Source: a virus
Strand: one strand, 5' to 3'
Virus record (IMG/VR): IMGVR_UViG_3300037140_000055
Location: 1 to 20,464 of that record
DNA: 20,464 nucleotides
The notes beneath the pieces are model-generated. The model did no database searches. It was not told the DNA's origin and saw only the letters and a list, made by a program, of their open reading frames with translations. Position numbers and translations under genes: made by a program. Numbering within the stretch: position 1 is the stretch's first letter; every line of letters begins with the position of its first letter. Positions 2,235 to 19,615 of the stretch are shown piece after piece.

Positions 2235-2853
2235 ATGCCGCGCGCCGCGCTAGCTTGGCGGGATCGTCAAAACAGTATCCAACAAAGCATGCTTATCCGG
2301 TTGACGCCCAATGCTTGACAGCCACCTGGAATTTTGCTTTTCTCCGTTCCGACAATCGCCTCCGATTGATTGGGGGTATCTAAAGACCATGTTTCCGTCG
2401 TCTGTTCGCGCCGAAAGGTAGAACGGCGATGAATAAGGTCCATTTCGGTGGATCGCGCAGAGTGCTCTGCGTCCTGTAGAGGGAGAGCCGGGTTCGTGTC
2501 GTCCATTGGGCGTCAACCGGATAAGCACGCAACAAAGGACGCTAGGGAAAGCTGCGTCGTCCCGAGAGGTTCGCAGCAAAGCCGATCTCACTGGACGCGC
2601 GAGCTATTGGGGGCAATTGAAGGACGCAGGCGGTCACGGTAGCGAAGCACACGCGGCGCATCAGGCGGGCACGCTTGACGCGCTTCCTCGGATAATTCGG
2701 AATGCCGACGACGATACCTTGCTTGACATATCCCGCTGGGAGCGGCAAACATTGCAGGGTGCTATGTTAGCGCATGGTAAAACTCAGTGGGACGAGAACC
2801 AGGACAGTGGGAGCCTGGACCCGAACCGCCCAGCAAAGGCAGCGAGCAAATGA
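2235..2853 (+). pseudogene. GHGS-family gene split by the MITE
   Basis: If 2288-2529 and one copy of CAACAAAG are removed, the flanks join in a single open frame. The left side ends RDRQNSIQQ, and the right side continues QRTLGKAASS and on through GQLKDAGGHGSEAHAAHQAG to the stop at 2853. The right part carries both family modules (KDAxGHGS and AHQxG) and the segment LDISRWERQTLQGAMLAHGK. As it stands, the 3' part is open from TTG 2506, inside the MITE. A second in-frame TTG at 2617 would give a KDAGGHGS start like the paralogs, so a 78-115 aa product may still be made. The ATG at 2235 is only the first available start, and the true 5' end may have been lost to the 95-bp duplication. The stop overlaps the next start (ATGA at 2850). 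Confidence 0.7.
2288..2529. mobile_element. Complete MITE, 242 bp, with 26-bp TIRs and 8-bp target duplication
   Basis: The ends are inverted repeats: 2288-2313 matches the reverse complement of 2504-2529 at 25 of 26 positions, with 24 contiguous (core CATTGGGCGTCAACCGGATA at 2504-2523). The element is flanked by the perfect direct repeat CAACAAAG at 2280-2287 and 2530-2537. Its right 174 bases recur exactly at 1-174. No transposase frame fits inside 242 bp, so it must be mobilised in trans by an element with matching ends. Eight-base duplications occur in several IS families (for example ISL3, IS1595, IS256 and IS66), and I cannot assign one from the ends alone. Confidence 0.88.
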
Positions 2854-3323
2854 GCAAAGATGCAAAAGGTCACGGCAGCAACGCACGCGGCGCACATTCT
2901 AGTGGAGTCGATCAGGTCGGCAAGCCTGCGCCCCGGGTCAACGACGCGGCGATGAAAGTCATCAGTAGCACGAAGCCCGGCGAAGGCTTCTCTATCACAC
3001 CGGGCGGCAGTCAACCGACAGACGGTCACATGGTTGCCCTGCCAAGCCGTACACAGGATGTCGATCCCGCTGCGTTATCCGGGCCCGGCGGTCGTGCCAT
3101 CATTGACGCGTTCACCGCGAAGAACGCGGACGTTTTCAGTGGCAACCCGAATATGCATGTCGGTGGCTGGCTCGATCCCGACACGCACAAGCTTTCACTC
3201 GATCCGTCCGAGAATATCAAGGATCGCAAGACAGCGATTGCCTCTGGCATAGCGCGCAATCAAAAAGAGATTTGGGATGTGAAGAATAAGACCGGGATAA
3301 AGACAGGTGGCAGTGGTACATGA
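2850..3323 (+). CDS. GHGS leader fused to a phage GGWxDP-type conserved domain, 157 aa
   Basis: The N-terminus is MSKDAKGHGSNARG. From about residue 45 the protein changes to a compact domain with EGFSITPGGSQPTDGHMVAL, then NADVFSGNPNMHVGGWLDPD, LSLDPSENIKDRKTA and a final NQKEIWDVKN with IKTGG. I recall this pattern (GFS...P.GYMVA, GGW.DP.T, LD.S....DR..A...G..NQ..I.D, TGG) from uncharacterised proteins and C-terminal domains in actinobacterial phages and polymorphic proteins. Its biochemical role is unknown to me. ATG 2850 is chosen because it overlaps the previous stop (ATGA) and aligns with the paralogous starts. An in-frame upstream start at 2787 is less likely. Confidence 0.7.
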   Translation: MSKDAKGHGSNARGAHSSGVDQVGKPAPRVNDAAMKVISSTKPGEGFSITPGGSQPTDGHMVALPSRTQDVDPAALSGPGGRAIIDAFTAKNADVFSGNPNMHVGGWLDPDTHKLSLDPSENIKDRKTAIASGIARNQKEIWDVKNKTGIKTGGSGT

Positions 3324-3468
3324 CGCGGACTGCCGGCTGCATTTCACGGACGCGCCCCAACGGTTAAACATGAAGCGGCGCATCACGACGGAAAGAAACT
3401 AAAACAACTCAGCGCGTAACCTGTCTTGGAAAACGCCGGTTGAAAATGAACAAGATAAGGCGCAGCAT

Positions 3469-3643
3469 GGTACATACCGACGCGGAATACGAAAAGCAGG
3501 AGCGGATCATCCGTTGTCAAAATTGACCGAAGTCCAGCGACGGCAGATTAGAACGGCTACCGGGATTACAGCGCGAGATAGCAGCGGAATTCGGGATCAC
3601 TCAGCCACTTGTTTCGATGATAAAGGCAGGGCTATACACATGA
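3469..3643 (+). pseudogene. Frameshifted small helix-turn-helix protein
   Basis: Three frames together read as one protein. ATG 3469 gives MVHTDAEYEKQERIIRCQ, which stops. The next frame gives KLTEVQRRQIRTATG. The third gives REIAAEFGITQPLVSMIKAG then LYT and a stop at 3641-3643. That last part is a typical helix-turn-helix of the 'IAxEFGVSxxxVSxIKxG' kind found in small DNA-binding phage proteins, but its frame has no start codon. One extra A in the AAAA at 3522-3525 region and one fewer G in the GGG near 3560 would join all three. The stop overlaps ATG 3640 (ATGA), as expected for an intact upstream neighbour. It is either a sequencing indel artefact or a decayed regulator gene. Confidence 0.6.
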
Positions 3644-3981
3644 AGAAAGAATTGAAGCCGGGCGAAGTCGGCGAACACCATATCCCGATCTACGACCACA
3701 AAGGCCACATGCGGGGCAGAGTCGGGCCGCGCGCTTCAAGCGTGACGGTCGCTCGCTTCATTGGCCTGCACGGCGCGAAGCTCGGGACCAAAGACGGCCG
3801 CACCGCATGGATCGGTCCGAAGCCGCCACCGCCGAAATTGCCGACTGCCGTCGCCGTCGCCGAGCAACAGGCTAAGGCGAAACCGCAGAATAACACGCTC
3901 GAAATCTCGCTCAAGGCCGATAAGGGCAGCGTGACAAAGACGCCGAGTGCGCCAAAGACGAGCGCCCGGCCGAAGAGGTAG
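3640..3981 (+). CDS. Hypothetical protein with basic Pro-rich tail, 113 aa
   Basis: The first 65 residues look folded: MKKELKPGEVGEHHIPIYDH, then GHMRGRVGPRASSVTVARFI and GLHGAKLGTKDGRTAWIGPK. From about residue 66 there is a Pro/Ala/Lys-rich disordered tail ending KTSARPKR. An in-frame TTG at 3514 would extend it to 155 aa. That extension belongs to the frameshifted helix-turn-helix gene, and ATG 3640 overlaps that gene's stop, so I take 3640. I do not recognise the fold. Overall charge is basic, which would suit nucleic-acid or head contact, but nothing proves it. usg follows seven bases later. Confidence 0.65.
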   Translation: MKKELKPGEVGEHHIPIYDHKGHMRGRVGPRASSVTVARFIGLHGAKLGTKDGRTAWIGPKPPPPKLPTAVAVAEQQAKAKPQNNTLEISLKADKGSVTKTPSAPKTSARPKR

Positions 3982-3987
3982 AGGCTA

Positions 3988-4233
3988 ATGAAGGATGGCT
4001 ACGGACTGACTACGGCCAGCATTCTCTATCGTCGGCCTGACCATCTTTGGTTGCTTCAAAGCTATATCTGGCAAGAGTATGATTTCTGTCCAGTGTTTCC
4101 TCAGTTACACAAGTTCCTGGATTTTTGGTTGGCCAAGCTCGACGGTCCATTACACTCGGTCACGGTCGCGCATGAGCGCTTGATAAAACCTACCGAAATC
4201 CGCGCCATAAGTAGCGAGTTTCGGCTTCACTAA
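3988..4233 (+). CDS. usg: Usg-like family protein, 81 aa
   Basis: It is full length for the family. GYGLTTASILYRRPDHLWLL, QSYIWQEYDFCPVFPQL, HKFLDFWLAKLDGPLHSVTV, AHERLIKPTEIRA and a terminal FRLH match, nearly word for word, what I remember of the Usg family (Pfam Usg-like). In alphaproteobacteria these are small cytosolic proteins of undefined function, historically linked by name only to a phosphoribosylanthranilate isomerase subunit. No catalytic residues are established. A ribosome binding site (AGAGG) precedes ATG 3988. It ends two bases before a promoter-like motif. Presence among phage genes suggests a captured host gene and points to an alphaproteobacterial host. Confidence 0.9.
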   Translation: MKDGYGLTTASILYRRPDHLWLLQSYIWQEYDFCPVFPQLHKFLDFWLAKLDGPLHSVTVAHERLIKPTEIRAISSEFRLH

Positions 4234-4234
4234 C

Positions 4235-4269
4235 ACCGGGTTGCTTTCATAATGCAATCGATGTTATCA
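4235..4269 (+). promoter_or_regulatory. Promoter-like motif ACCGGGTTGC-N19-TTATCA
   Basis: ACCGGG (4235-4240) runs straight into TTGCTT (4241-4246), then 17 bases, then TTATCA(T) at 4264-4270. A start near 4276 gives a short leader with GGGAGAG ahead of ATG 4293. It begins right behind the usg stop. Confidence 0.6.
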
Positions 4270-4292
4270 TGTAAAAATCCTGGGAGAGTGCT

Positions 4293-4481
4293 ATGATCAA
4301 AGACAAATTCGATTGCGATTGCTCGGGCGGCCAGCCGGTCGAGAACGATCAGCATGCGGCGACCGTGCTCGCGCAGGGCGGCCCGAAATCAAAGCGCGTC
4401 CCGGTCAAGTGGGGCATGAAGGATCAAGATAGCGGGGCCGAAGGGCTCGCGCGCAAAGGCGGTTCCGACCCCTACGCGTAA
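4293..4481 (+). CDS. Small modular-family protein, 62 aa
   Basis: It starts MIKDKFDCDCSGG, with a Cys-x-Cys where the paralogs have GHGS. It then carries the shared block GGQPVENDQHAATVLAQGGP followed by KSKRVPVKWGMKDQ (about residues 12-46), closest to the middle of the protein at 1904. The WGMKDQ ending recurs in variant form in the neighbours at 4563 (TMKDQ, WGMK) and 6218 (YGLKDE). GGGAGAG at 4282-4288 supports the start. It is probably a single-gene unit, with promoter-like motifs on both sides (4235-4269 and 4493-4527). The function is unknown. Confidence 0.7.
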   Translation: MIKDKFDCDCSGGQPVENDQHAATVLAQGGPKSKRVPVKWGMKDQDSGAEGLARKGGSDPYA

Positions 4482-4492
4482 GCTCGAAATTT

Positions 4493-4527
4493 ACCGGGTT
4501 GCTTTGGTTAACGGACGCGGCTAAGGT
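4493..4527 (+). promoter_or_regulatory. Promoter-like motif ACCGGGTTGC-N19-TAAGGT
   Basis: ACCGGGTTGC (4493-4502) has TTGCTT at 4499-4504, a 17-base spacer and TAAGGT at 4522-4527. The bases ahead of it (AAATTT) also match those ahead of the copy at 824. A start near 4534 would fall inside the left arm of the hairpin at 4529-4554. Confidence 0.55.
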
Positions 4528-4528
4528 G

Positions 4529-4554
4529 CCTCCGAAGAATTTCATTCTCGGAGG
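4529..4554 (+). promoter_or_regulatory. Strong hairpin over the ribosome binding site of the gene at 4563
   Basis: CCTCCGA (4529-4535) pairs with TCGGAGG (4548-4554) and GAAT (4537-4540) with ATTC (4544-4547). This gives eleven pairs with one bulged A and a three-base loop. The right arm is the Shine-Dalgarno GGAGG, eight bases before ATG 4563. Read-through transcripts would have it buried. Transcripts starting inside the left arm would not. Confidence 0.65.
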
Positions 4555-4562
4555 ATATTCCC

Positions 4563-7832: not shown

Positions 7833-8597
7833 ATGGCTGCGAATAAACCGAGTTGGCCGAAGTGCGGATGCATCGAGCGATGCGAACGTCTCAAGTGTCA
7901 GATGGCTGGAGGTCGAGACGCCTACAAACGCGCCGCCACGGCAGATAACAATCCGAAGCAAGGTATCGCCACTCGGAAATACTCCCCTCAATACCTCAAA
8001 AGTATCATCGCTGCCGCAGCAGATGTTCCGGCGGAGGCCGTCATCTGTAGGAAAGTGGGCATATCCCGTACCATGCTCCGGTATTGCCTAAAACGCAGCC
8101 AAGAGGGGCGCGCGGGGGATATGTTTGATGTTGAAGTCAAAGATGGCCACGCCGAACGCTTCCACATTCTATATGAGGACGCGATTGACGCGGGCTACGA
8201 CAGGCATCAACAACATGCTAACGATCTCGCTCTTGGCGCGGCACGCGAAGTTCTCGAACATCACGGTCGAGTCGTATATAAATCTGATCCGGTTCTTCTA
8301 TCCTTTGGGCTGAAAGGAGCAGACGCATATCTGTTGGATAAGGATGGAAGCCCTGTTCCTGAAACACGGCCTGTTGGTGGGGCAGTGCAAGCTGAGATGA
8401 CACGCTGGATTTTAACGCATGTTCGTCCGAAGCAGTACGGCACCAAGGTACAGGTCGAGCACGAGCATAAGGGAGGAATTGTTGTCGTCAGCGCGCCACT
8501 GACTCCTGACCAACTCGAAAAAACTTTCGGTGGCGGCCAGAAAATAGTCGATGTGGAGTTTGAAGCGCTGCCGCCACCCCCGGAGAAGAAGTCATGA
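7833..8597 (+). CDS. terS: Terminase small subunit, 254 aa
   Basis: It recognises the phage genome for packaging and hands it to the large subunit. It sits just ahead of terL with an ATGA overlap (8594-8597), the standard arrangement. A helix-turn-helix-like segment lies at about 67-87 (EAVICRKVGISRTMLRYCLK), followed by a helical oligomerisation region. The ending RWILTHVRPKQYGTKVQVEH (191-210) matches the 'RxPxxYGxxVxVEH' motif common near the C-terminus of such small subunits. Odd points are four Cys in the first 22 residues (C11, C13, C17, C22), a possible metal site, and an acidic/Pro-rich tail. An AAAGGAG site supports ATG 7833. Confidence 0.75.
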   Translation: MAANKPSWPKCGCIERCERLKCQMAGGRDAYKRAATADNNPKQGIATRKYSPQYLKSIIAAAADVPAEAVICRKVGISRTMLRYCLKRSQEGRAGDMFDVEVKDGHAERFHILYEDAIDAGYDRHQQHANDLALGAAREVLEHHGRVVYKSDPVLLSFGLKGADAYLLDKDGSPVPETRPVGGAVQAEMTRWILTHVRPKQYGTKVQVEHEHKGGIVVVSAPLTPDQLEKTFGGGQKIVDVEFEALPPPPEKKS

Positions 8598-11011
8598 GTT
8601 TCCCGACAGTCTATCGATGGCGGTTCAATGGCACTGAATACGTTCCAATTATTCTCGACGCATTCGGGAACGAGATGGAGTGTATTTGGGCCCCGCAAGC
8701 CGGGTCGCAAGCTGCGTTTCTATCGGCTACCGAGCTTGAAGTCATATTTGTCGGGACGCGCGGTGGATGCGGCAAGTCGGATGCTTTGCTTTTTTCATAT
8801 TTACAGCATGTCGGTCGCGGATGGGGCGGAGCCTGGAAAGGTATCATTCTGCGGCAGACGCATCCGATGTTGCGGGAATTCATTGACCGGACGAAGCGTT
8901 GGATACCCCGGATTTGGCCCAGCTCCGAATACAACGAAGTAAAATATCGTTGGACGTTTCCTAGCGGGGAGACACTCTATCTATCGCATCTCTCCGAACC
9001 TGTTGATTTCCATGAGTACCAAGGCCAGGAGTTCACATTCATTGGATTTGAAGAACTTGTGACGTGGCCAAATTTGGATTGCTACAAGCTCATGTTCTCT
9101 TGCTTGCGATCTCCGGTCCCTGGTATTCCTTTGATGATACGTTCGACGACCAACCCCTACGGACCCTCTCACAATCTCATCAAGAGCCGGTTCAATTTGC
9201 CAATCCCAAATGCGAAGTCCATGGCAAATCCAGACGGCGCGGTCATGGGGCCGCTCATCCCAGGCGAGGTCGATGAGAACGGTATTCAAGAACCGGATCG
9301 CCGTGTATTCCATGGACACATCCTGGAAAATAAACTCCTACTCAGGAGCAATCCAAGATATGTGGACAATCTGAAAGCCAGCGCCAAGAGCAAAGATTTG
9401 GAGCGGGCGTGGCTCGATGGTGATTGGGACATCACGGCAGGCGGCCTTCTCGATAACGTTTGGGCGAAGGCGAAGAAATTTGCTGTTCTGGAAGGGCTGT
9501 CGCCGCAAACGATCCCAGATGATTGGACAATTTTCAGAGCTTATGATCACGGGTATTCAGCACCGTTCGTTGTCCAGTGGTACGCTTTGAGCAATGGCAA
9601 CGATATTACCTTGGTAAATGGTAAGGTAAGATCGACTCGACGGGGCGATCTTTTTTTGGTCCGGGAATGGTATGGTTCGTCGGGCAAACCAAACGAAGGC
9701 ATGGAAATTCTAGCGCCCGAAATTGCCAAGGGTATTGTCGCACGCGAGATCGAGTGGGGCTGGCAACCCCCCGCCGGGGGTAAAAGCCGTGTCAAATCAG
9801 GACCGGCGGATACCGGAATTTTTGACGATGTGAATGGAGTCCACATCTCGGCGGACTTTGAAAAACCCGTTCACTTGAACAGCCGCAAATATCGAGGGAT
9901 CATATGGGAGCACGCGGATAAAGGAAAAAATTCTCGCGCGCTGGGTTGGGATCAGTTGCGGGAACGTTTGGACGCTACGGTGCCGCTTGAAGGCGTTGGT
10001 CGCGAGCGGCCGGGGCTTTTCGTTTCATCTGAATGCCACGCATGGCTGCGGACAGTCCCGGTCTTGCCGCGCGACGAAGCGCAGGTGGACGACTGTCCAA
10101 AGAATTGTGAGGACCATTGTTTTGTTGCCGGGACTATGGTGGATACAGAAGAGGGCTCTATTGCAATCGAGAAGTTACCTGTATCGGGGCGGCTACATTC
10201 ATTAGACCGTATTGAGCCATACTGTAACCCCCGACTAATTCAGCGAGAAGCACACGTTGTGCGATTGACGTTTAATGATGGACGGACTGTGGAATGCACA
10301 CCGGATCATAAATTCCTTGTAGATTTAGATGAATGGTGGTACGCAAAAGACTTACTCGGAAAGGAAGTCCTGTGCAGCCGATCATTATCAGCCAAACGAT
10401 CCAGGAATTTGAAGGAGTCCGCTACTACCTCTGCGGCAAATACTTTCAGCACAAAGGCAGTCGCCTCCATATTCGCGTGTGGGAGTATCACAAGGGACCT
10501 ATACCAGCGGGCCACCACATTCACCACAAACATACTCGCGCCCAAAATGGACCAAATGATCTGGAATGCCTCACCGCTGTTGAGCATGGCAGGGATCGGC
10601 ATGGGGCGGAGTCTGGAGAAAGAGGGCGGCAATATCTCCCACTTGCTCAGGCCGCTGCCGCAGCTTGGCACAGAACCGACGAGGGCCGTCAATGGCACTC
10701 GGAGCATTCTAAAAAGTTCATGCGGGAGCGTGTTGCAGATTGCGTATCGCTTAATTGCCAGCATTGCGGAGCGACCTTTTCCACGCCTCGATACGCCAGT
10801 GGTTTTGCAAAATTTTGCCACCCGAATTGTAAAGCGCGTGCGTTGCGTCGGCGTCGAAAACTTGCAAGAGCGACGTGACGTATATTGCTTGACTGTTCCG
10901 ACCAATCACACATTTTCGATTGAGGGCGGCATCCTCGTCGCGAATTGTGGGGATTGTTGCAGATATGCCTTGCGGTTCGAATATCAGCCAATGGTCAGCC
11001 GTCGAATTTGA
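8594..11011 (+). CDS. terL: Terminase large subunit precursor containing an intein, 805 aa (529 after splicing)
   Basis: This is the packaging motor ATPase and nuclease. The ATPase domain has Walker A GTRGGCGKS (54-62), Walker B FTFIGFEEL (about 147-155) and a coupling motif RSTTNPYG (183-190). The RNase-H-like nuclease has acidic residues at D318 (FRAYDHG) and D406 (ADTGIFDD). The third, D787, lies in CEDH|CGDCCRY, which is interrupted by the intein (residues 509-784). Mature exteins of 508 and 21 residues sum to 529, normal for this family. The portal follows at 11530. Splicing must occur for the nuclease to form, so packaging depends on it. Confidence 0.92.
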   Translation: MSFPTVYRWRFNGTEYVPIILDAFGNEMECIWAPQAGSQAAFLSATELEVIFVGTRGGCGKSDALLFSYLQHVGRGWGGAWKGIILRQTHPMLREFIDRTKRWIPRIWPSSEYNEVKYRWTFPSGETLYLSHLSEPVDFHEYQGQEFTFIGFEELVTWPNLDCYKLMFSCLRSPVPGIPLMIRSTTNPYGPSHNLIKSRFNLPIPNAKSMANPDGAVMGPLIPGEVDENGIQEPDRRVFHGHILENKLLLRSNPRYVDNLKASAKSKDLERAWLDGDWDITAGGLLDNVWAKAKKFAVLEGLSPQTIPDDWTIFRAYDHGYSAPFVVQWYALSNGNDITLVNGKVRSTRRGDLFLVREWYGSSGKPNEGMEILAPEIAKGIVAREIEWGWQPPAGGKSRVKSGPADTGIFDDVNGVHISADFEKPVHLNSRKYRGIIWEHADKGKNSRALGWDQLRERLDATVPLEGVGRERPGLFVSSECHAWLRTVPVLPRDEAQVDDCPKNCEDHCFVAGTMVDTEEGSIAIEKLPVSGRLHSLDRIEPYCNPRLIQREAHVVRLTFNDGRTVECTPDHKFLVDLDEWWYAKDLLGKEVLCSRSLSAKRSRNLKESATTSAANTFSTKAVASIFACGSITRDLYQRATTFTTNILAPKMDQMIWNASPLLSMAGIGMGRSLEKEGGNISHLLRPLPQLGTEPTRAVNGTRSILKSSCGSVLQIAYRLIASIAERPFPRLDTPVVLQNFATRIVKRVRCVGVENLQERRDVYCLTVPTNHTFSIEGGILVANCGDCCRYALRFEYQPMVSRRI
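10118..10945 (+). other. Intein in TerL, 276 residues
   Basis: The N-terminal block is CFVAGTMVDTEEGSIAIEKL beginning with the nucleophile C509 of the precursor. Block B has T61 and H64 (intein numbering) in GRTVECTPDHKFLV. The C-terminal block F/G reads DVYCLTVPTNHTF and GGILVAN before +1 Cys (C785). The penultimate residue is Ala rather than the usual His, as seen in some active inteins. Roughly intein residues 86-237 (10376-10828) have no Hint-fold features: this stretch is the shadow of an HNH endonuclease read in the -1 frame. The splicing part is thus about 125 residues, the size of a mini-intein. Confidence 0.9.
10372..10878 (+). CDS. HNH homing endonuclease nested out of frame in the intein, 168 aa
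   Basis: In the -1 frame relative to terL, the HNH module YYLCGKYFQHKGSRLHIRVW is followed by GPIPAGHHIHHKHTRAQNGP and NDLECLTAVEHGRDRH. This is the usual 'HHI...N....LE.LT..EH' core of homing nucleases. A Cys4-type zinc finger follows (CQHCGATF, then FCHPNC) with a basic tail RALRRRRKLARAT. The start is most likely GTG 10372, with AAGGAAG at 10361-10367. ATG 10333 in the same frame gives 181 aa but no ribosome site. The last 50 bases overlap the C-terminal splicing block. It would cut intein-less terL alleles and so spread the intein. Confidence 0.85.
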   Translation: MQPIIISQTIQEFEGVRYYLCGKYFQHKGSRLHIRVWEYHKGPIPAGHHIHHKHTRAQNGPNDLECLTAVEHGRDRHGAESGERGRQYLPLAQAAAAAWHRTDEGRQWHSEHSKKFMRERVADCVSLNCQHCGATFSTPRYASGFAKFCHPNCKARALRRRRKLARAT

Positions 11012-11065
11012 ACCTGTTGCGGCTGAGGCATAGATGTGGTTAATAGCCGTTTTTGGGGAACCGCC

Positions 11066-11287
11066 ATGGGCGAGAGAATTCACACAATTCGAATTGGCGA
11101 GGACGGCTATCCGGAGCCTGCACAAGCAAGGATGAACTACGGACCTAAGCGTAGTGCGTCCGAGCGGTATGATAGTGAAAATATAGGAACTGGCCCTAAT
11201 CCAGAAAAGCAAAGTGGCGGAGTTGAAGCCGTCTCGTGGAATGGGGTGCTCAGCGGCGAAGGTCGCCGAGGCTTCAAACAAAGCTAA
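11066..11287 (+). CDS. Hypothetical protein, 73 aa
   Basis: It starts MGERIHTIRIGEDGYPEPAQ and continues with polar, charged sequence to WNGVLSGEGRRGFKQS. GGGGAA (11056-11061) four bases ahead supports ATG 11066 over an in-frame GTG at 11036. Its place between terL and the portal gene, where many phages keep small head-assembly proteins, is the only functional hint. No domain is recognised. Confidence 0.6.
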   Translation: MGERIHTIRIGEDGYPEPAQARMNYGPKRSASERYDSENIGTGPNPEKQSGGVEAVSWNGVLSGEGRRGFKQS

Positions 11288-13206: not shown

Positions 13207-15972
13207 ATGCCCTTTGACGAAAGCCAGCATCCGCGTGGTGAGCACGGCCGGTGGGCAGTCAGCGCGGGCGGCACTGTCGAGCCGCTCGTCGATCCGCGCG
13301 TGCTCGATGTCGGCGGCGATCAATGGAACAAGGATACTGCGGCCCGACTCGAAAACGAGTATGAGGCAGCGCGTCCGGCACTGAACGCTCTTGTCGAGAC
13401 GGCGGCCAAAGCACCGTCGCCTTCGGATGATGCCGAAGTAAGCGCCGCAGTAAAAGCAAACACTACAGCTAATTTTCACGACTTAGAAAATAGCTTGTCC
13501 GATACTGAGTCGGCTGCGCTTATCAGCAAGTATGGCTCAATTCAAGCGGCATCCACAGCATTGTACGGTAAAGATGCGCCTGGTTTCAAAGGTACGGACG
13601 AACCCGAGGACGAGGAGAGTCCGGAGTCCTGGGATGAGATGAATAACGATCTACAAGAACAGGCAGGGGATAAATACAAAGAGTCAAACTATGAACAAGC
13701 CCTAGAAAGCGAGCAAAATAACTGGTCAGAAAATGGCGCGCCTGCGGAGGCAGCAGCCAAGGTCGCAGAAGATGACGACTGGAAAGCGGAATTCTTGACA
13801 GATTATCTCGCGCAGCGGATCGAGGACGGCGAGCCCGCCATCCCTTACACCGCACAAGAATTGCTCGACTCAATCACATTGAATTTCGATCATGACTCAG
13901 CCTCTGGCTCGGGCTATGGTTCAAAAAGTCTAGCCGAAAAATATCTGGAAGTCGGATTTGACGACAGTCAATTGCAGCACCCTCACAACAATTTCAATCC
14001 CGATCAAATGACGCTTCCTGGTATTGAAGAGGTGAAACCAGAAAGCTCGCTCACTGAGGATATGCGCAAAGACATCACCGAAGCCATCACTGACGCATTC
14101 ATAGAAAAAACAGATAAAGAGACAAGCAATATGGAGGCTCCCGATTATCTTTCGGAAAGCGCTAATGACCTGGTAGCTGAAGATTGGGACCAAATGGGCG
14201 ACAAGGATAAGTTTCAATGGGTCAAAAATAATACTGATCTCGTGGATGATGAGAAGCCGGGGAAGCCTGAACCGAAGGACGAGGGGCCACTTTTAATACC
14301 CACGACCTGGAACCCGATGCAAGACAACGATAAGGGCGCAGGAAATTACACTCGCACGCAACGAATGGCGAAATATCTCGCCAATAACCGCGCCGTTCAA
14401 GTCATGGCGCAGCGTGGCGTACAGACTCTAAATCAAAGGGGCGATCCGGTTCTCACACATGCGGCGGTGCCGGGGACTGATACCAAGTATAGTGAGGAAG
14501 CACATCCTCTTACCCCGACGCTTGAGGCTATTGAGCAATCAGATGAACGATTATGGTCCGGCTGGAAGGGAAGCTCTACCGGAGCGGAGGGGCGGCTCCT
14601 ACAGGTTGCATCGGCTGACGAGCTTGGCGGCCGACTCAGGGAAGCGATAAAAAATCCTGATATGGCGGTGGAGTATAGCGCATTTGCGAAAAGCGATATC
14701 GCAAAAACAGGTACCTTAGAGGAATTTTCAGCGGGACTAAAGGCAAGCAGCAATCCAGTCGAGATGGCAAAGGCGGCAAAATCTGATCCTGATACATCAT
14801 TCGAACAAAAACAAAAAGCTCAGGAAATTATAGAGAACCCCCCTACTTGGAAGCAGCCGCCGCTCGGCGAAAAGGTTACGTTATTCAGTGGGACTGAAAT
14901 ATCGCTGGATAGTAACCCCATGTTGCATGCTTTAGGCAGCAAATTAAAACTTCACGACGGCACGGAAATTCAGAAGCAGCCAGACGGCAAATGGAAAGCA
15001 ACAACAGGTCCACAACCGAGTACGTTGCCGACTCAGGGTAATCCGGCGAAGCTGAAAAGTGAAACCGTATCTCGATACCCCGCAGTAGGCGCGAGTGGTG
15101 CGGGCGCTCCCAGCTATCAGAGACTTCCTGAAATGAACGTCGTGCGTAACGGAGCTACTTCAACTACCACTGATCTAGGTGTCGCAAACGGTTGGGGCGG
15201 TACGGCGAACAATGCATCCAACGGTATCAGCCGGGACGAAGCTATCGAATACGCCAACATGAACTTTGCCAGCATTGGCGGCTACGAGGGTGTCAAAGCA
15301 GCGGTCCGGGCGAAATGGGAAACTACACAATACATGCTCGATAAGGCCGACACACCGATTGTCCAGGTCTATCGCGGCATGAGCTACCCGCACACGCGTT
15401 CAGAAGATGTGATACCTGCCGGAGCCGCAGGTAAAAAATTGGCTGCTGCGGATTTAGAAACTGGGGTTTCTTTTATAAAAGCGCAACCTAAAATGGAAGT
15501 CTCCACGCTTCTGGATAAATCAGGAGAGCCACAACAAAAAGCTCTCATCGCTGAATATGGAAGCCTCTACAACGCAATTGGTGCTATTCATGGTCACGAT
15601 GCCAACGCGATCAAACTACACGACGTGATCCAAAAAGTGCAGGCGGTTCCTACACCTCATGAAGCCGTATCGTATTTGAGTGGGACGGAAATGGAAGCCC
15701 TTACAAAACAGTATGGCTCTTTTGCCAAAGCGTGGGTGGAGATACATCCCGCAGAAGAAACTCCGACTCGCGGGCGCGTTGTGCTACGCGCTGAGGTACC
15801 GCGCACGGCCGTCCTGTCAGTTCCAGCCTACGGCGTAAATGTCCATAGCGAGCACGAAGTTGTTGTCACTGGCACATCCTGGCGTGGCTGGGATGCATGG
15901 TCTGACAAGGCACCGTCGTTTGAGGATGTACCAATGGGTACGAAGACGTCTCCACCAAGGGGCCGCTTATAG
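13207..15972 (+). CDS. Large head-associated protein with C-terminal ADP-ribosyltransferase-like domain, 921 aa
   Basis: The N-terminus MPFDESQHPRGEHGRWAVS is a leader of the 'FDExxHPRGxxGxF' type, shared with the protein at 18023. Residues 40-700 are mostly acidic, helical and low in recognisable motifs. From about 715 the sequence fits an ART fold: VYRGMS with R723, a strand GRVVLRAEVPRTAVLS, then SEHEVVV with an ExE pair at E882/E884. R-S-E type ARTs transfer ADP-ribose from NAD to arginines, and phages fuse such domains to head proteins for injection. Between R723 and ExE lie two copies of a helical repeat (cores YGS at 784 and 836). A third copy is at 109. No Mu F domain is evident. The catalytic call is by pattern only. 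Confidence 0.65.
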   Translation: MPFDESQHPRGEHGRWAVSAGGTVEPLVDPRVLDVGGDQWNKDTAARLENEYEAARPALNALVETAAKAPSPSDDAEVSAAVKANTTANFHDLENSLSDTESAALISKYGSIQAASTALYGKDAPGFKGTDEPEDEESPESWDEMNNDLQEQAGDKYKESNYEQALESEQNNWSENGAPAEAAAKVAEDDDWKAEFLTDYLAQRIEDGEPAIPYTAQELLDSITLNFDHDSASGSGYGSKSLAEKYLEVGFDDSQLQHPHNNFNPDQMTLPGIEEVKPESSLTEDMRKDITEAITDAFIEKTDKETSNMEAPDYLSESANDLVAEDWDQMGDKDKFQWVKNNTDLVDDEKPGKPEPKDEGPLLIPTTWNPMQDNDKGAGNYTRTQRMAKYLANNRAVQVMAQRGVQTLNQRGDPVLTHAAVPGTDTKYSEEAHPLTPTLEAIEQSDERLWSGWKGSSTGAEGRLLQVASADELGGRLREAIKNPDMAVEYSAFAKSDIAKTGTLEEFSAGLKASSNPVEMAKAAKSDPDTSFEQKQKAQEIIENPPTWKQPPLGEKVTLFSGTEISLDSNPMLHALGSKLKLHDGTEIQKQPDGKWKATTGPQPSTLPTQGNPAKLKSETVSRYPAVGASGAGAPSYQRLPEMNVVRNGATSTTTDLGVANGWGGTANNASNGISRDEAIEYANMNFASIGGYEGVKAAVRAKWETTQYMLDKADTPIVQVYRGMSYPHTRSEDVIPAGAAGKKLAAADLETGVSFIKAQPKMEVSTLLDKSGEPQQKALIAEYGSLYNAIGAIHGHDANAIKLHDVIQKVQAVPTPHEAVSYLSGTEMEALTKQYGSFAKAWVEIHPAEETPTRGRVVLRAEVPRTAVLSVPAYGVNVHSEHEVVVTGTSWRGWDAWSDKAPSFEDVPMGTKTSPPRGRL

Positions 15973-16475: not shown

Positions 16476-17552
16476 CTAAAGGCCAGGGATTTCCACTACC
16501 GGAGGCGGACGTTCCCGCCCGACACGGAGAATGTTTAGCGCTGCGTTCACATCCCGATCGTGAGAAGTGCCGCAGTCTGAACAAACCCAATGTCTTATTT
16601 CAAGCGCGCCCATACCTTTCGGACTGCTGTCGGGAATACACCCGCAGCACGAGCACGTCTGAGAAGTCCATCGCTCGTCGGCTTCTACATACCGAGCCCC
16701 GTGCCTGCTGGCTTTGTAGCGGAGCTGATTGCGGAACGTCGTCCATCCTGCATCGAGTACGGATTTAGCCATCCGCGTCTTTACAAGTTTGGCGGCGCTC
16801 ACATTGCCGACAACGATAAGCCGATTTTGGCGAACTATCGAAGTAGTCGCCTTGTGGTGTTGATCCTTTCGGACGTTCGCAATCTTTGCGTGGATGGCTT
16901 TGACGCGACACTTGTTGCCGGCGCGCTGTTGAACGGCGAGCGCGACCTCGTACTTGCGATAGTGCTGAAGCGCCGGAACAGTGTTGCCATTGCTGCACGT
17001 CGCCAGCGTCCTCAATCCAAGGTCGATCCCTATCTCTCCGTTGCCGGTCGGCAGGTCATCGGTAACCTCACACTGGAAACAGACATACCAGCGCCCGCGA
17101 GCGTCCTGAGTAAAGCAGCCGGCCTTGATGTCGTCGGGAATATCCCGCGATTTCCAGAAGTGGAATTTCCGTTTGAGGTAGACGACATGTGCGCCTTCGA
17201 GACGTACAGCGCGCTTGATAAATGGCAGCCAACCGAGTGCGCGCTTCGACCCACCGCTGGCGCGAAAGCGCGGGGCGTGGCGGGCGGCGTTGCGCGAGAT
17301 TACAAACTGCTTGCAAATCTGACTGACCGTATCGGAGTGCAGCCCAAGTTCCGCAGCACATCCAGTAGTCAGCTTGACAAGATCGAAGTGCGACGGCCAA
17401 CGACGCTTAGGCGCGCCGTCCCTGTAATTGGACATCGCCCTGCGCTGTATCTCGCAACAGTAATTCCACACGAAGTTGCACGCCCGCGAGTGCCGCCCGA
17501 GGTACTTACCGACCATTGCGTCTTTGATGCGGAACTTATATGTAAGGATCAT
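16476..17552 (-). CDS. tnpB: TnpB, RNA-guided endonuclease of the IS element, 358 aa
   Basis: TnpB cuts DNA at the element's donor site using an RNA from the element's right end. The N-terminus MILTYKFRIKDAMVGKYLGR is typical. The RuvC parts are D177 (IGIDLGLRT), the segment IVVGNVSAAKLVKTRMAKSV and D332/D334 in HDRDVNAALNIL. A zinc ribbon has CSCC at 300-303 and CSDC at 324-327. The usual glutamate of the second RuvC motif ('vvENL') is replaced by Gly249. E290 and E293, in VEADERWTSQTC, could substitute, as in TnpB/Fanzor proteins with a rearranged active site. The ATG at 17552 is preferred to a TTG at 17579. Length is normal, with no frameshift. Confidence 0.88.
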   Translation of the reverse strand: MILTYKFRIKDAMVGKYLGRHSRACNFVWNYCCEIQRRAMSNYRDGAPKRRWPSHFDLVKLTTGCAAELGLHSDTVSQICKQFVISRNAARHAPRFRASGGSKRALGWLPFIKRAVRLEGAHVVYLKRKFHFWKSRDIPDDIKAGCFTQDARGRWYVCFQCEVTDDLPTGNGEIGIDLGLRTLATCSNGNTVPALQHYRKYEVALAVQQRAGNKCRVKAIHAKIANVRKDQHHKATTSIVRQNRLIVVGNVSAAKLVKTRMAKSVLDAGWTTFRNQLRYKASRHGARYVEADERWTSQTCSCCGCIPDSSPKGMGALEIRHWVCSDCGTSHDRDVNAALNILRVGRERPPPVVEIPGL

Positions 17553-17581
17553 ACGCAGGAAGTATTGGTCGGTGGTCAAAA

Positions 17582-17992
17582 ATGCAAGGCTTCAGGCGCG
17601 AACGACATAGCGTTTCCCGGCTCACGGTCCACTTGGTCTGCGTCACGAAATACCGACGCAAAATCCTCGATGGCCGGGCGCTTGACTGGCTCAAGGCGCA
17701 CTTTGCCAAGGTTTGCCAGACAATGGATTGTGTACTTCTCGCCTGCGACGGTGAGAACGACCATGTCCATTTGCTGGTCGAGTACCCACCGAAACACTCG
17801 ATCTCTGTCTTGGTTAATGCCATCAAGGGTACGTCCAGCCGGCTACTGCGCGCCGAAAGGCCAGACGTCGCCAAGCGCTACTGGAAGGGTGTTCTGTGGT
17901 CCCCGGCCTATTTTGCCGCCTCGACCGGCGGAGCCACGCTTGAAACGGTTAAGCGGTACGTCGAACAGCAGCGCGCCTCCTCCTCGCCCTGA
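17582..17992 (+). CDS. tnpA: TnpA, Y1 (HUH) transposase of IS200/IS605, 136 aa
   Basis: This is a single-strand transposase that cuts and joins the hairpin ends of the element. The family opening is VHLVCVTKYRRKIL (16-29). The metal-binding HUH is HVH at 61-63 (GENDHVHLLVEYPPK), and the nucleophile is Y126 in ETVKRYVEQQ. YWKGVLWSPAYFAAS (100-114) is also characteristic. Length is normal, so it appears intact and potentially active. It starts 30 bases from tnpB on the opposite strand, so the two promoters must overlap in 17553-17581. Confidence 0.92.
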   Translation: MQGFRRERHSVSRLTVHLVCVTKYRRKILDGRALDWLKAHFAKVCQTMDCVLLACDGENDHVHLLVEYPPKHSISVLVNAIKGTSSRLLRAERPDVAKRYWKGVLWSPAYFAASTGGATLETVKRYVEQQRASSSP

Positions 17993-18022
17993 AGGGCAAG
18001 GTTTCCGGCTTGGAGATTTACG

Positions 18023-19615
18023 ATGACCGAATTCGACGAGGGCGCGCATCCACGTGGCAAGGGCGGCAAGTTCGCGCTCAAAGGTAGCGCGGGTGGTCAT
18101 GAAGGACAGATCGCGACTGCCATCGCAACAAGTGTGGACGCGGACACCGATCAATATAAACAGCCGAGCGTCGCAGCAATGGCGGGCGACGGCGCAACCG
18201 ATCCGAAAGTCATCGCGGCTACTGAGAAAAATTTCGAACATGATATCGGGCTATTCCACGATGCTTCGATCTATCCAAATTTTCGATCAGATGAATTGAA
18301 AGGCACTGTGCGCGAGCAAGCTACCGCCATCGTCAAGAACCTGACGAGCAATCTCGTGTTCCTCTATAATCAGGCGAGCGACGAAGTAAAGCACGCTGGG
18401 AGTATCTGGTACGAGAGCGCGCACAAGGTTGGTGAGAAAGCCACCGCTGATAGCGTAAATGCGGACTTCCCGAAGGGGCTACCACAGATCGGCGTATTTG
18501 GCACAATCGCAATTTTGTCGCCGAACAAAGAATGGGACCAGAACGTCGATATGGCTCGCCGTGTCGTGGACACTTATGCGACGAAACAACATTATCAGTT
18601 CGACGAGGCTATGCGAGCGCAATTCGCGAAAACTTGGGACGCCAATAAAGCCGGTAGTTCTGGAAAGCCAGACCCGGACTCGCAGAAGTACAAAGACAAG
18701 GTGAAGCTTTTTGAGTCGTATCGCCGGGACGTGGAGGGTAAAAAGCTTGGTGAGTTATCCAGTCCATTGCTCAAGGCAGTATGGATCAGAACCTATGATG
18801 AGGCGCACAATCCGCAAACATACCACACGTTTTTGCCTAACGGCGATATTGGCCCGCTCGCGCGCAATCTTCCAAATAGGAAATTCCCGGAGGGTGCACC
18901 CACGACGATGGTGTGGCAATCGACCAAGTTCGTTGCTAATGCTGTTCGTTGTTTAGAGTCCAATGGCGACCGACAAATCATCTCAGATAATATGGGCGGC
19001 AACCATAAAGTGCGATCATTTTTCAACAACATCCTAGACCCCCATTCACCAAACCAAGACACAACCATTGACACGCACCAAGTCGGTGCGGCATTGTTAC
19101 GGGGACTCGGTGCAAAGTCGGCTCCAGTGACCCAAAACTTTGGGTTGGCACCGCCGAAAGGCGTCGAAGCTGCGAGCGGATCGGAGGTCACTGGCCTATC
19201 CGGTACCTACGGCGTTTACGCCGACGCCACACGCGCCGCCGCGAAAGAAACGGGCGTGCCCTACGCTCAGGTGATGCAAGCGATCACTTGGGTCACGAAA
19301 CGAAACGTACTCGGGGAGACTTCTGACGCAGCCAACGCGCTGATAGAAAAAGCCTGGGGCCGCTATCACGACGGCCGACTGACGCAACCGCAGACGCAAA
19401 AGTTGGTTTGGAATATCGCTATGCAAGATGTGGCGCGCCAAGCCGTGGCGCGTAAAACGAAACTCGATTGGGATTTAGCAGCGCCTGCTCGGGTTGCGGC
19501 ACGAGCGGTCGCAAGAGCGCAAACGGACTCGGACAAGGCCGCGCGAGCGACTGCGCGAGCGAAGAAGAAAGTGAAGAGTGCTACACAAGCAAAGAAAGTG
19601 AAGTTGCTATTATGA
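18023..19615 (+). CDS. DUF7178-like phage protein with HPRG leader, 530 aa
   Basis: It starts MTEFDEGAHPRGKGGKFALK, the same leader type as the 921-aa protein at 13207. The core matches a phage family I remember as DUF7178. It has FGTIAILSPNKEWDQNVDMA (159-178), NHKVRSFFNNILDP (327-340), TTIDTHQVGAALL (347-359) and, near 400-430, YGVYADATRAAAKETGVPYA then QAITWVTKR. The 'K..sF..NI..P' and 'vTID.H' spacing recalls helical DNA-binding or glycosylase-like folds, but no activity is established. The C-terminal 50 residues are Ala/Arg/Lys-rich and may bind nucleic acid. GGAG (18012-18015) supports ATG 18023. The next gene overlaps by ATGA. Confidence 0.7.
   Translation: MTEFDEGAHPRGKGGKFALKGSAGGHEGQIATAIATSVDADTDQYKQPSVAAMAGDGATDPKVIAATEKNFEHDIGLFHDASIYPNFRSDELKGTVREQATAIVKNLTSNLVFLYNQASDEVKHAGSIWYESAHKVGEKATADSVNADFPKGLPQIGVFGTIAILSPNKEWDQNVDMARRVVDTYATKQHYQFDEAMRAQFAKTWDANKAGSSGKPDPDSQKYKDKVKLFESYRRDVEGKKLGELSSPLLKAVWIRTYDEAHNPQTYHTFLPNGDIGPLARNLPNRKFPEGAPTTMVWQSTKFVANAVRCLESNGDRQIISDNMGGNHKVRSFFNNILDPHSPNQDTTIDTHQVGAALLRGLGAKSAPVTQNFGLAPPKGVEAASGSEVTGLSGTYGVYADATRAAAKETGVPYAQVMQAITWVTKRNVLGETSDAANALIEKAWGRYHDGRLTQPQTQKLVWNIAMQDVARQAVARKTKLDWDLAAPARVAARAVARAQTDSDKAARATARAKKKVKSATQAKKVKLLL

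What the first reader, a model, noticed from the sequence alone, without database searches (positions are those of the whole stretch)
10118..10945. Intein whose HNH endonuclease is encoded in a different, nested reading frame
The splicing blocks sit in the terL frame, yet the HNH core and zinc finger are read only in the -1 frame (10372-10878). The terL frame across 10376-10828 has no stop for about 150 codons although its translation looks like shadow sequence. Inteins normally carry their endonuclease fused in frame. Here endonuclease and splicing protein would be separate products from the same DNA: the host protein needs the frame open, the nuclease needs its own start (GTG 10372 with AAGGAAG). 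Alternatively a -1 slip on A-AAG at 10360-10363 lands exactly in the HNH frame, making a TerL-nuclease fusion from part of the transcripts. I do not know of a described family with this layout.
Basis: partly seen in the sequence, partly recalled or inferred. Interest (0 to 1): 0.85.

Follow-up and report, generated by a model that had tools for sequence, protein, structure and literature searches.

The report
TerL intein with nested out-of-frame nuclease
A self-splicing insert (intein) in a phage DNA-packaging gene carries a second gene, for an HNH DNA-cutting enzyme, hidden in another reading frame of the same DNA; the same double-coding layout recurs in 127 distinct relatives across many phages, so it is a real and widespread type of mobile element and not a sequencing error.

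Summary
TerL (8594-11011) holds an intein at 10118-10945, just before the last nuclease Asp motif. An HNH endonuclease with a zinc finger (10372-10878) lies wholly in the -1 frame, while the TerL frame stays open. AlphaFold gives a confident Hint fold from residues 1-88 and 240-276; the nested part, read in the TerL frame, is disordered. The layout is conserved. Of 152 non-redundant HNH relatives, 127 are nested in an open TerL-intein frame, always the same relative frame and never in frame. In a 94-member subset the intein frame has 0 stops against 143-225 expected. Substitutions show selection on the HNH frame. The nearest relative (L162) has ATG where the window has GTG10372, behind the same Shine-Dalgarno sequence; slippery heptamers are not enriched. 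Best reading: a mini-intein that tolerates an independently translated homing-endonuclease gene nested out of frame. Eight relatives, including Lactobacillus phage CL2, are "fractured": the HNH gene separates two intein halves, so the element may bridge contiguous and split inteins. Out-of-frame HNH inserts without an intein are published (ShiLan domain). A preprint on non-canonical intein architecture could not be read, so priority is open. Splicing, HNH expression and homing are inferred, not shown.

The parts
8594..10117 (+). TerL N-extein (508 aa)
   Evidence: PHROG terminase large subunit matches; aligned with intein-less TerL proteins up to the insertion point ...EDH|
10118..10945 (+). 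Intein, 276 aa in the TerL frame, Cys1 to Asn276
   Evidence: Pfam Intein_splicing 6.9e-12; TIGR01445/TIGR01443 above cut-off; empty-site homologues
10118..10381 (+). N-terminal splicing half of the intein (residues 1-88)
   Evidence: AlphaFold pLDDT about 95-98 for residues 1-80, 84 for 81-90; C1, T61 and H64 conserved
10361..10367 (+). Shine-Dalgarno-like AAGGAAG for the nested HNH gene
   Evidence: Sequence; duplex energy -5.6 with the 16S tail; identical in L162
10372..10878 (+). Nested HNH homing-endonuclease gene in the -1 frame, GTG start, stop 10876-10878 (168 aa)
   Evidence: HNH_3 1.2e-7; phrog_15471 8.8e-24 for the longer ORF; profile match to I-HmuI 1u3e E 2.4e-4; AlphaFold mean pLDDT 93; catalytic His/Asn and four zinc Cys invariant in relatives
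10385..10822 (+). Part of the intein frame that overlaps the HNH gene: disordered linker (residues 90-235)
   Evidence: Mostly pLDDT below 50; no extra constraint on hydropathy; stop-free by selection
10835..10945 (+). C-terminal splicing half of the intein (residues 240-276); first about 40 nt overlap the HNH 3' end
   Evidence: pLDDT 94-98; 80% identical to L162
10946..11011 (+). TerL C-extein CGDCCRYALRF..., with the last nuclease Asp motif (D-x-x-RY)
   Evidence: Alignment A2; empty-site homologues ...EDH|IADETRYR...

Best explanation
The element is a class-1 mini-intein at the last catalytic Asp motif of TerL whose loop contains a complete HNH homing-endonuclease gene in the -1 frame. Ribosomes that read TerL pass through the HNH DNA in the intein frame and make a disordered linker of about 150 residues; the two Hint halves still fold and should splice TerL. 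Other ribosomes start inside the gene (GTG10372 behind AAGGAAG) and make free HNH nuclease, which should cut intein-less terL genes so that the whole intein is copied in. Selection keeps the HNH protein and removes stops from the intein frame. SHOWN by computation: layout, conservation, stop avoidance, selection on the HNH frame, Hint fold, empty sites, element more similar than host TerL in many pairs. INFERRED: splicing, translation of the HNH gene, cleavage of the empty site.
For: Same nested layout and same relative frame in 127 non-redundant relatives, 0 in frame. 0 intein-frame stops against 143-225 expected; unused frame at expectation; free-standing HNH genes mostly at expectation. Leu, Val and Ile NTA codons never precede A or G in nested genes but make up 18-30% of these residues' codons before C or T; Met never precedes A (0 of 107, against 207 of 744 in TerL). 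Differences per HNH codon position 0.31/0.25/0.58 over 313 pairs; identity 64% in the HNH frame, 33% in the intein frame of the same DNA, 66% in the N splicing half. Confident Hint fold with disordered middle, Foldseek to DnaE/DnaB/gp41-1 inteins. Start codon and Shine-Dalgarno shared with L162; strong internal Shine-Dalgarno plus ATG in other members, e.g. L004, L142, L143, L148. Mobility: 67 of 70 nearest TerL relatives not carrying it; HNH 70% against TerL 22% identity for L092/L103, HNH more similar in 87% of 220 pairs selected for HNH identity of 60% or more.
Against: No splicing, expression or cleavage data. The penultimate intein residue in the window is Ala, not His. Strong Shine-Dalgarno sites are found in only 13% of members (control frames 3%), so how the HNH gene is started in many members is open. 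The 'open' class was defined partly by openness, although only 8 broken cases stand against 127 open ones. HNH identity above TerL identity can partly reflect different rates and the selection of pairs by HNH identity.
Confidence: 0.82

Rival explanations
1. Programmed -1 frameshifting: some ribosomes slip near 10360 and make a TerL-IntN-HNH fusion.
For: The HNH is always in the -1 frame of TerL in the open forms, as such slippage would need.
Against: Slippery X XXY YYZ heptamers are not enriched (6 of 94, control 10.5); every member has an ATG or GTG in the HNH frame upstream of the core, though over an interval that is often long. The window site lacks a proper heptamer. L162 has ATG at the window's GTG. 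The constant frame has another explanation: in this frame a HNH gene meets about 1.5 stops by chance, in the other about 14.
Confidence: 0.06
2. Sequencing or assembly indels have thrown an in-frame HNH intein out of frame.
For: Metagenomic assemblies can carry indels.
Against: Two indels would be needed in each of 127 distinct relatives, always to the same frame. The same sequence is in further IMG/VR records, and cultured or separately deposited phages TJE1, MD07 and Highwayman share the layout.
Confidence: 0.01
3. The HNH frame is a decayed or fortuitous ORF; only the intein matters.
For: Free-standing HNH genes decay often, and L029 has a broken HNH inside an open intein frame.
Against: Strong third-position bias in the HNH frame, invariant HNH and zinc residues, and selection against stops is in the intein frame, not merely an open HNH frame.
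Confidence: 0.02
4. RNA-level removal: a group I or other intron with an intron-encoded HNH, the intein motifs being coincidental.
For: HNH genes are common inside phage introns, and the closest solved HNH is I-HmuI.
Against: No Rfam match in 10000-11100; all 48 members scanned match Intein_splicing; confident Hint fold; the frame is kept open, which an intron does not need.
Confidence: 0.01
5. An ShiLan-like insertion that is retained in TerL and not spliced out.
For: [quoted passage not shown]
Against: Here Cys1, TxxH, terminal Asn and Cys/Ser+1 are conserved, the Hint fold is predicted, and a 276-residue insert next to the last catalytic Asp would be expected to spoil TerL if kept.
Confidence: 0.05

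Closest known systems
ShiLan domain and Pacc40 gp60 insertion (Arsenault, Gosselin and Gogarten 2025, PMC11855218)
   Same: An HNH endonuclease hidden out of frame inside a phage gene whose own frame stays open; GTG start near the insert's beginning; related free-standing HNH genes next to the host gene.
   Different: That paper finds no intein or intron parts and thinks the insert stays in the methylase. Here the HNH is nested in a complete intein, in TerL, in 127 distinct relatives.
Inteins with an in-frame homing endonuclease (LAGLIDADG, or HNH as in cyanobacterial GyrB; the latter from own knowledge)
   Same: Hint splicing domain with the endonuclease placed in the same loop; insertion at a conserved catalytic motif.
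   Different: Here the endonuclease is a separate product from another frame. The SPbeta BnrdE intein, checked as a possible precedent, is in-frame LAGLIDADG.
Fractured genes with split inteins such as gp41-1 and NrdJ-1 (Dassa et al. 2009; from own knowledge)
   Same: The intein profile matches gp41-1 best of all solved structures (6qaz, 6.5e-16) and also NrdJ-1. Eight relatives are fractured, with the HNH gene between the two intein halves.
   Different: The window's gene is contiguous, the HNH is nested out of frame, and the nuclease is HNH rather than the Vsr-like type that I recall for the published set.
Group I introns with HNH genes (I-HmuI of SPO1)
   Same: A self-removing insert with an HNH gene that may be read from its own start.
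   Different: Removal is by protein splicing, and the host frame must stay open through the HNH gene.
Mycobacteriophage TerL inteins (PMC5050341)
   Same: Inteins in TerL.
   Different: That survey puts terminase inteins in the N-terminal ATPase domain; these sit at the last nuclease Asp motif.

Membership tests
Class 1 intein | Nucleophilic first residue and block B TxxH | tested here: met
   Cys1 and T61 invariant, H64 in at least 90% of 48 members
Class 1 intein | C-terminal Asn followed by Cys/Ser/Thr | tested here: met
   Asn276 then Cys in the window; HN/SN then C, S or T in relatives
Class 1 intein | Penultimate His before the terminal Asn | tested here: not met
   Ala in the window, His in most relatives; not strictly required in all inteins (own knowledge)
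Class 1 intein | Hint fold | tested here: met
Class 1 intein | Intein-less homologues at a conserved host site | tested here: met
   67 of 70 nearest TerL relatives scored empty
Class 1 intein | Protein splicing activity | not testable with these tools
   Needs expression
Intein with in-frame homing endonuclease domain | Endonuclease in the same frame as the splicing blocks | tested here: not met
   HNH in the -1 frame in the window and in all 127 open relatives
HNH homing endonuclease | HNH motif and zinc-binding residues | tested here: met
HNH homing endonuclease | Cleavage of the empty allele and homing | not testable with these tools
   Only indirect: sporadic distribution and transfer between TerL lineages
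ShiLan-type insertion | Out-of-frame HNH with open host frame | tested here: met
ShiLan-type insertion | No self-splicing domain | tested here: not met
   Intein splicing domain present
Split intein / fractured gene | Intein halves on separate ORFs with the nuclease gene between | tested here: not met
   Not in the window; met in L006, L149, L083, L076 and CL2
Group I intron with HNH gene | Intron RNA core | tested here: not met
   No Rfam match at E up to 1

The most novel reading that the evidence does not exclude
Out-of-frame nesting is the bridge between contiguous and split inteins. Once the nuclease is translated on its own, the intein frame needs only to stay stop-free; a stop in the linker plus a start before the C-half then turns the host gene into a fractured gene with a trans-splicing intein, in one or two steps. 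The TerL family shows free-standing, nested and fractured forms side by side, and the relative frame is fixed in the nested form and free in the fractured form.
Probability: 0.45. Interest if true: 0.87.

Novelty: new variant of a known kind. Interest (0 to 1): 0.78.

Why it matters
Inteins are taught as one polypeptide with splicing and nuclease domains in one frame. Here the two activities share DNA but not protein, in a large conserved family at a catalytic motif of an essential phage gene. It is an unusually clean case of dual coding: one frame is constrained as protein, the other is selected only to lack stops. The fractured relatives make the origin of split inteins, which are widely used tools, directly testable. 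Standard annotation misses the layout: the nuclease is swallowed by 'terminase' in TJE1, MD07 and Highwayman, and the TerL C-terminus is left unannotated in phage CL2.

Tried and rejected
Frameshift translation: no enrichment of slippery heptamers. Sequencing error: refuted by relatives. Group I intron: no Rfam match. SPbeta BnrdE intein as a precedent (from a vague memory): it is in-frame LAGLIDADG. A first explanation of the fixed frame, that NNT to NNC changes keep it open, was wrong: I had the frame offset reversed. The stops at risk come from NTA before A/G and NTG before A, shown. Selection for a hydrophilic linker: observed hydropathy equals expectation. Foldseek of the HNH model against PDB gave no significant match. 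Plasmids hold no relative at the sensitivity used. The first genome-contig scan confirmed none, the second gave seven loci. The wide HNH alignment A1 was too diverse for scans. The Gosselin et al. preprint (10.1101/2025.01.02.630785) is known only from a reference list and could not be read; Gorbalenya 1998 is not held. Transition counts on the tree are weak: 50 of 110 inner branches are unsupported.

Full report
OBSERVATION. The TerL ORF 8594-11011 contains an intein at 10118-10945: Cys1 at 10118, Asn276 at 10943-10945, Cys+1 at 10946. The whole-protein match to Intein_splicing and the N- and C-terminal intein domains pass curated cut-offs. A HNH endonuclease with a zinc finger is read only in the -1 frame, 10372-10878. 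The TerL frame is open through it and the third frame is not. The sequence occurs in further IMG/VR records (L002 in a 117 kb contig, L003).

RELATIVES. A scan of IMG/VR with the HNH protein gave 48 relatives. In most of them the HNH is also -1 relative to an open TerL-intein ORF. Further scans gave 249 loci with the HNH, 152 after removing near-copies above 90% identity of the HNH core. Of these 127 are nested in an open intein frame, all in the same relative frame; 8 have the two intein halves in separate ORFs; 14 are labelled without an intein (13 HNH genes of this family, most of them beside terL, and one distant HNH in SPbeta, L234); 3 show one half only. None is in frame. Phage records with the nested form are Tetrasphaera phage TJE1, Rhodobacteraceae phage MD07, Acinetobacter phage Highwayman and the faecal contig MT838676; bacterial contigs include Frankia sp. 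AgB32 and a Selenomonadaceae MAG.

HOST AND SITE. All 32 aligned members match the terminase large subunit family phrog_2. The intein always sits just before, or within a few residues of, the D-A-x-R-Y motif near the TerL C-terminus, which I take as the last catalytic Asp of the TerL nuclease (established knowledge of TerL). Of the 70 nearest TerL relatives of the window, 67 showed no intein by the profile scan (...EDH|IADETRYR...), and L162, 52% identical, has the nested form.

TWO FRAMES UNDER DIFFERENT RULES. In 94 non-redundant nested members the intein frame has no stop over 14,297 HNH codons; permuting each gene's own synonymous codons predicts 143 and TerL codon usage predicts 225. The unused frame has 1267 against 1294 expected. 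Most free-standing HNH relatives match expectation. The codons show how: the intein codon is made of HNH positions 2, 3 and 1', so stops arise from NTA before A or G and NTG before A. In nested genes these combinations are absent for Leu, Val and Ile, while NTA makes up 18-30% of these residues' codons before C or T; Met never precedes A (0 of 107) although in TerL it does in 207 of 744 cases. Because membership was defined partly by an open frame, the fair comparison is 127 open against 8 broken, when few would be open by chance (geometric mean about 0.1 per member). Over 313 pairs with at least 60% HNH identity the differences per HNH position are 0.31, 0.25 and 0.58; protein identity is 64% in the HNH frame and 33% in the intein frame of the same DNA, while the N splicing half keeps 66%. 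Linker hydropathy equals expectation. So the HNH is selected as a protein; the overlapping intein stretch seems selected only to lack stops. The expected counts also explain the constant frame: about 1.5 stops per gene in this frame against about 14 in the other.

STRUCTURE. AlphaFold of the intein in the TerL frame gives pLDDT of about 95-98 for most of residues 1-88 and for 240-276 and mostly below 50 for 90-235. Foldseek finds DnaE, DnaB and gp41-1 inteins with target TM-scores up to 0.83. By sequence profile the best solved relative is the split intein gp41-1 (6qaz, 6.5e-16), with NrdJ-1 also matched. The HNH model has pLDDT 93 and its profile matches I-HmuI; structure search gave nothing significant.

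HOW THE HNH IS MADE. The window has AAGGAAG-TCCT-GTG. L162 has the same upstream sequence with ATG in place of GTG and no earlier start in its HNH frame. Other members have strong internal Shine-Dalgarno sites with ATG (L004, L129, L142, L143, L148), but strong sites occur in only 13% of members against 3% in control frames. All 94 have ATG or GTG upstream of the core in frame, and slippery heptamers are rarer than in control phases. Internal initiation is the better-supported route, shown for none.

MOBILITY. The element is often more alike than its host: L092 and L103 share 70% of the HNH but 22% of TerL; the HNH is more similar in 87% of 220 pairs chosen for HNH identity of 60% or more. With the empty sites this supports transfer, presumably by homing.

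FRACTURED AND FREE FORMS. In L149, L006, L083, L076, L070 and Lactobacillus phage CL2 the intein frame is interrupted. In most of these the TerL-N-IntN ORF ends at a stop near the HNH start, and IntC has its own ATG or GTG near the HNH end (ATGA overlap in L006, GTGA in L149). In these broken forms the relative frames vary, as expected if frame no longer matters. In Yuavirus PAE1, SN1 and FBPa53, and in Poludnitsa, the HNH gene lies just downstream of an intein-less terL. The HNH tree mixes the three states, 14 changes at least, but its backbone is weak. A route from free-standing to nested to fractured, or back, is plausible and not shown.

NOVELTY. Published and close: the ShiLan domain, an out-of-frame HNH in a phage methylase without splicing domains (PMC11855218). 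That paper cites a preprint on actinobacteriophage inteins with 'non-canonical architecture' and Gorbalenya 1998 for overlapping frames; neither could be read, so earlier description of nested inteins cannot be excluded. I therefore rate it a new variant of a known kind.

VERDICT. Observation confirmed, main interpretation supported, frameshift alternative disfavoured. Splicing, HNH translation and homing remain inferences.

Noticed in passing
L230 (Lactobacillus phage CL2, KR905067) 506-2650: A cultured phage with a fractured TerL: the annotated TerL (506-1954) ends in the intein N-half, then an HNH gene, then an unannotated IntC with the TerL C-terminus. Looks like a natural split intein.
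   Followed up: partly
L014 441-4718: A TerL ORF of 1426 aa with two further intein-like inserts besides the nested one, one of them at the Walker A region; L099 and L139 also have unusually long TerL N-parts.
   Followed up: no
L071 about 2750-3750: A HNH gene without intein flanked by two similar copies of a terL 3' end (...RYGxxxFDLxPxxVTYYxNIWR stop), as if the gene had inserted with a copied end of terL.
   Followed up: no
L029 1067-1621: The HNH frame is broken while the intein frame stays open, as expected for a decayed homing endonuclease in a still functional intein.
   Followed up: partly
L050 (Brevundimonas phage Poludnitsa) about 4010-4555: An unannotated HNH gene overlaps the 3' end of an intein-less terL.
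   Followed up: partly
window 13207-15972 and 16590-18026: Large ORFs (921 and 478 aa) next to the portal gene with no Pfam or PHROG match.
   Followed up: no
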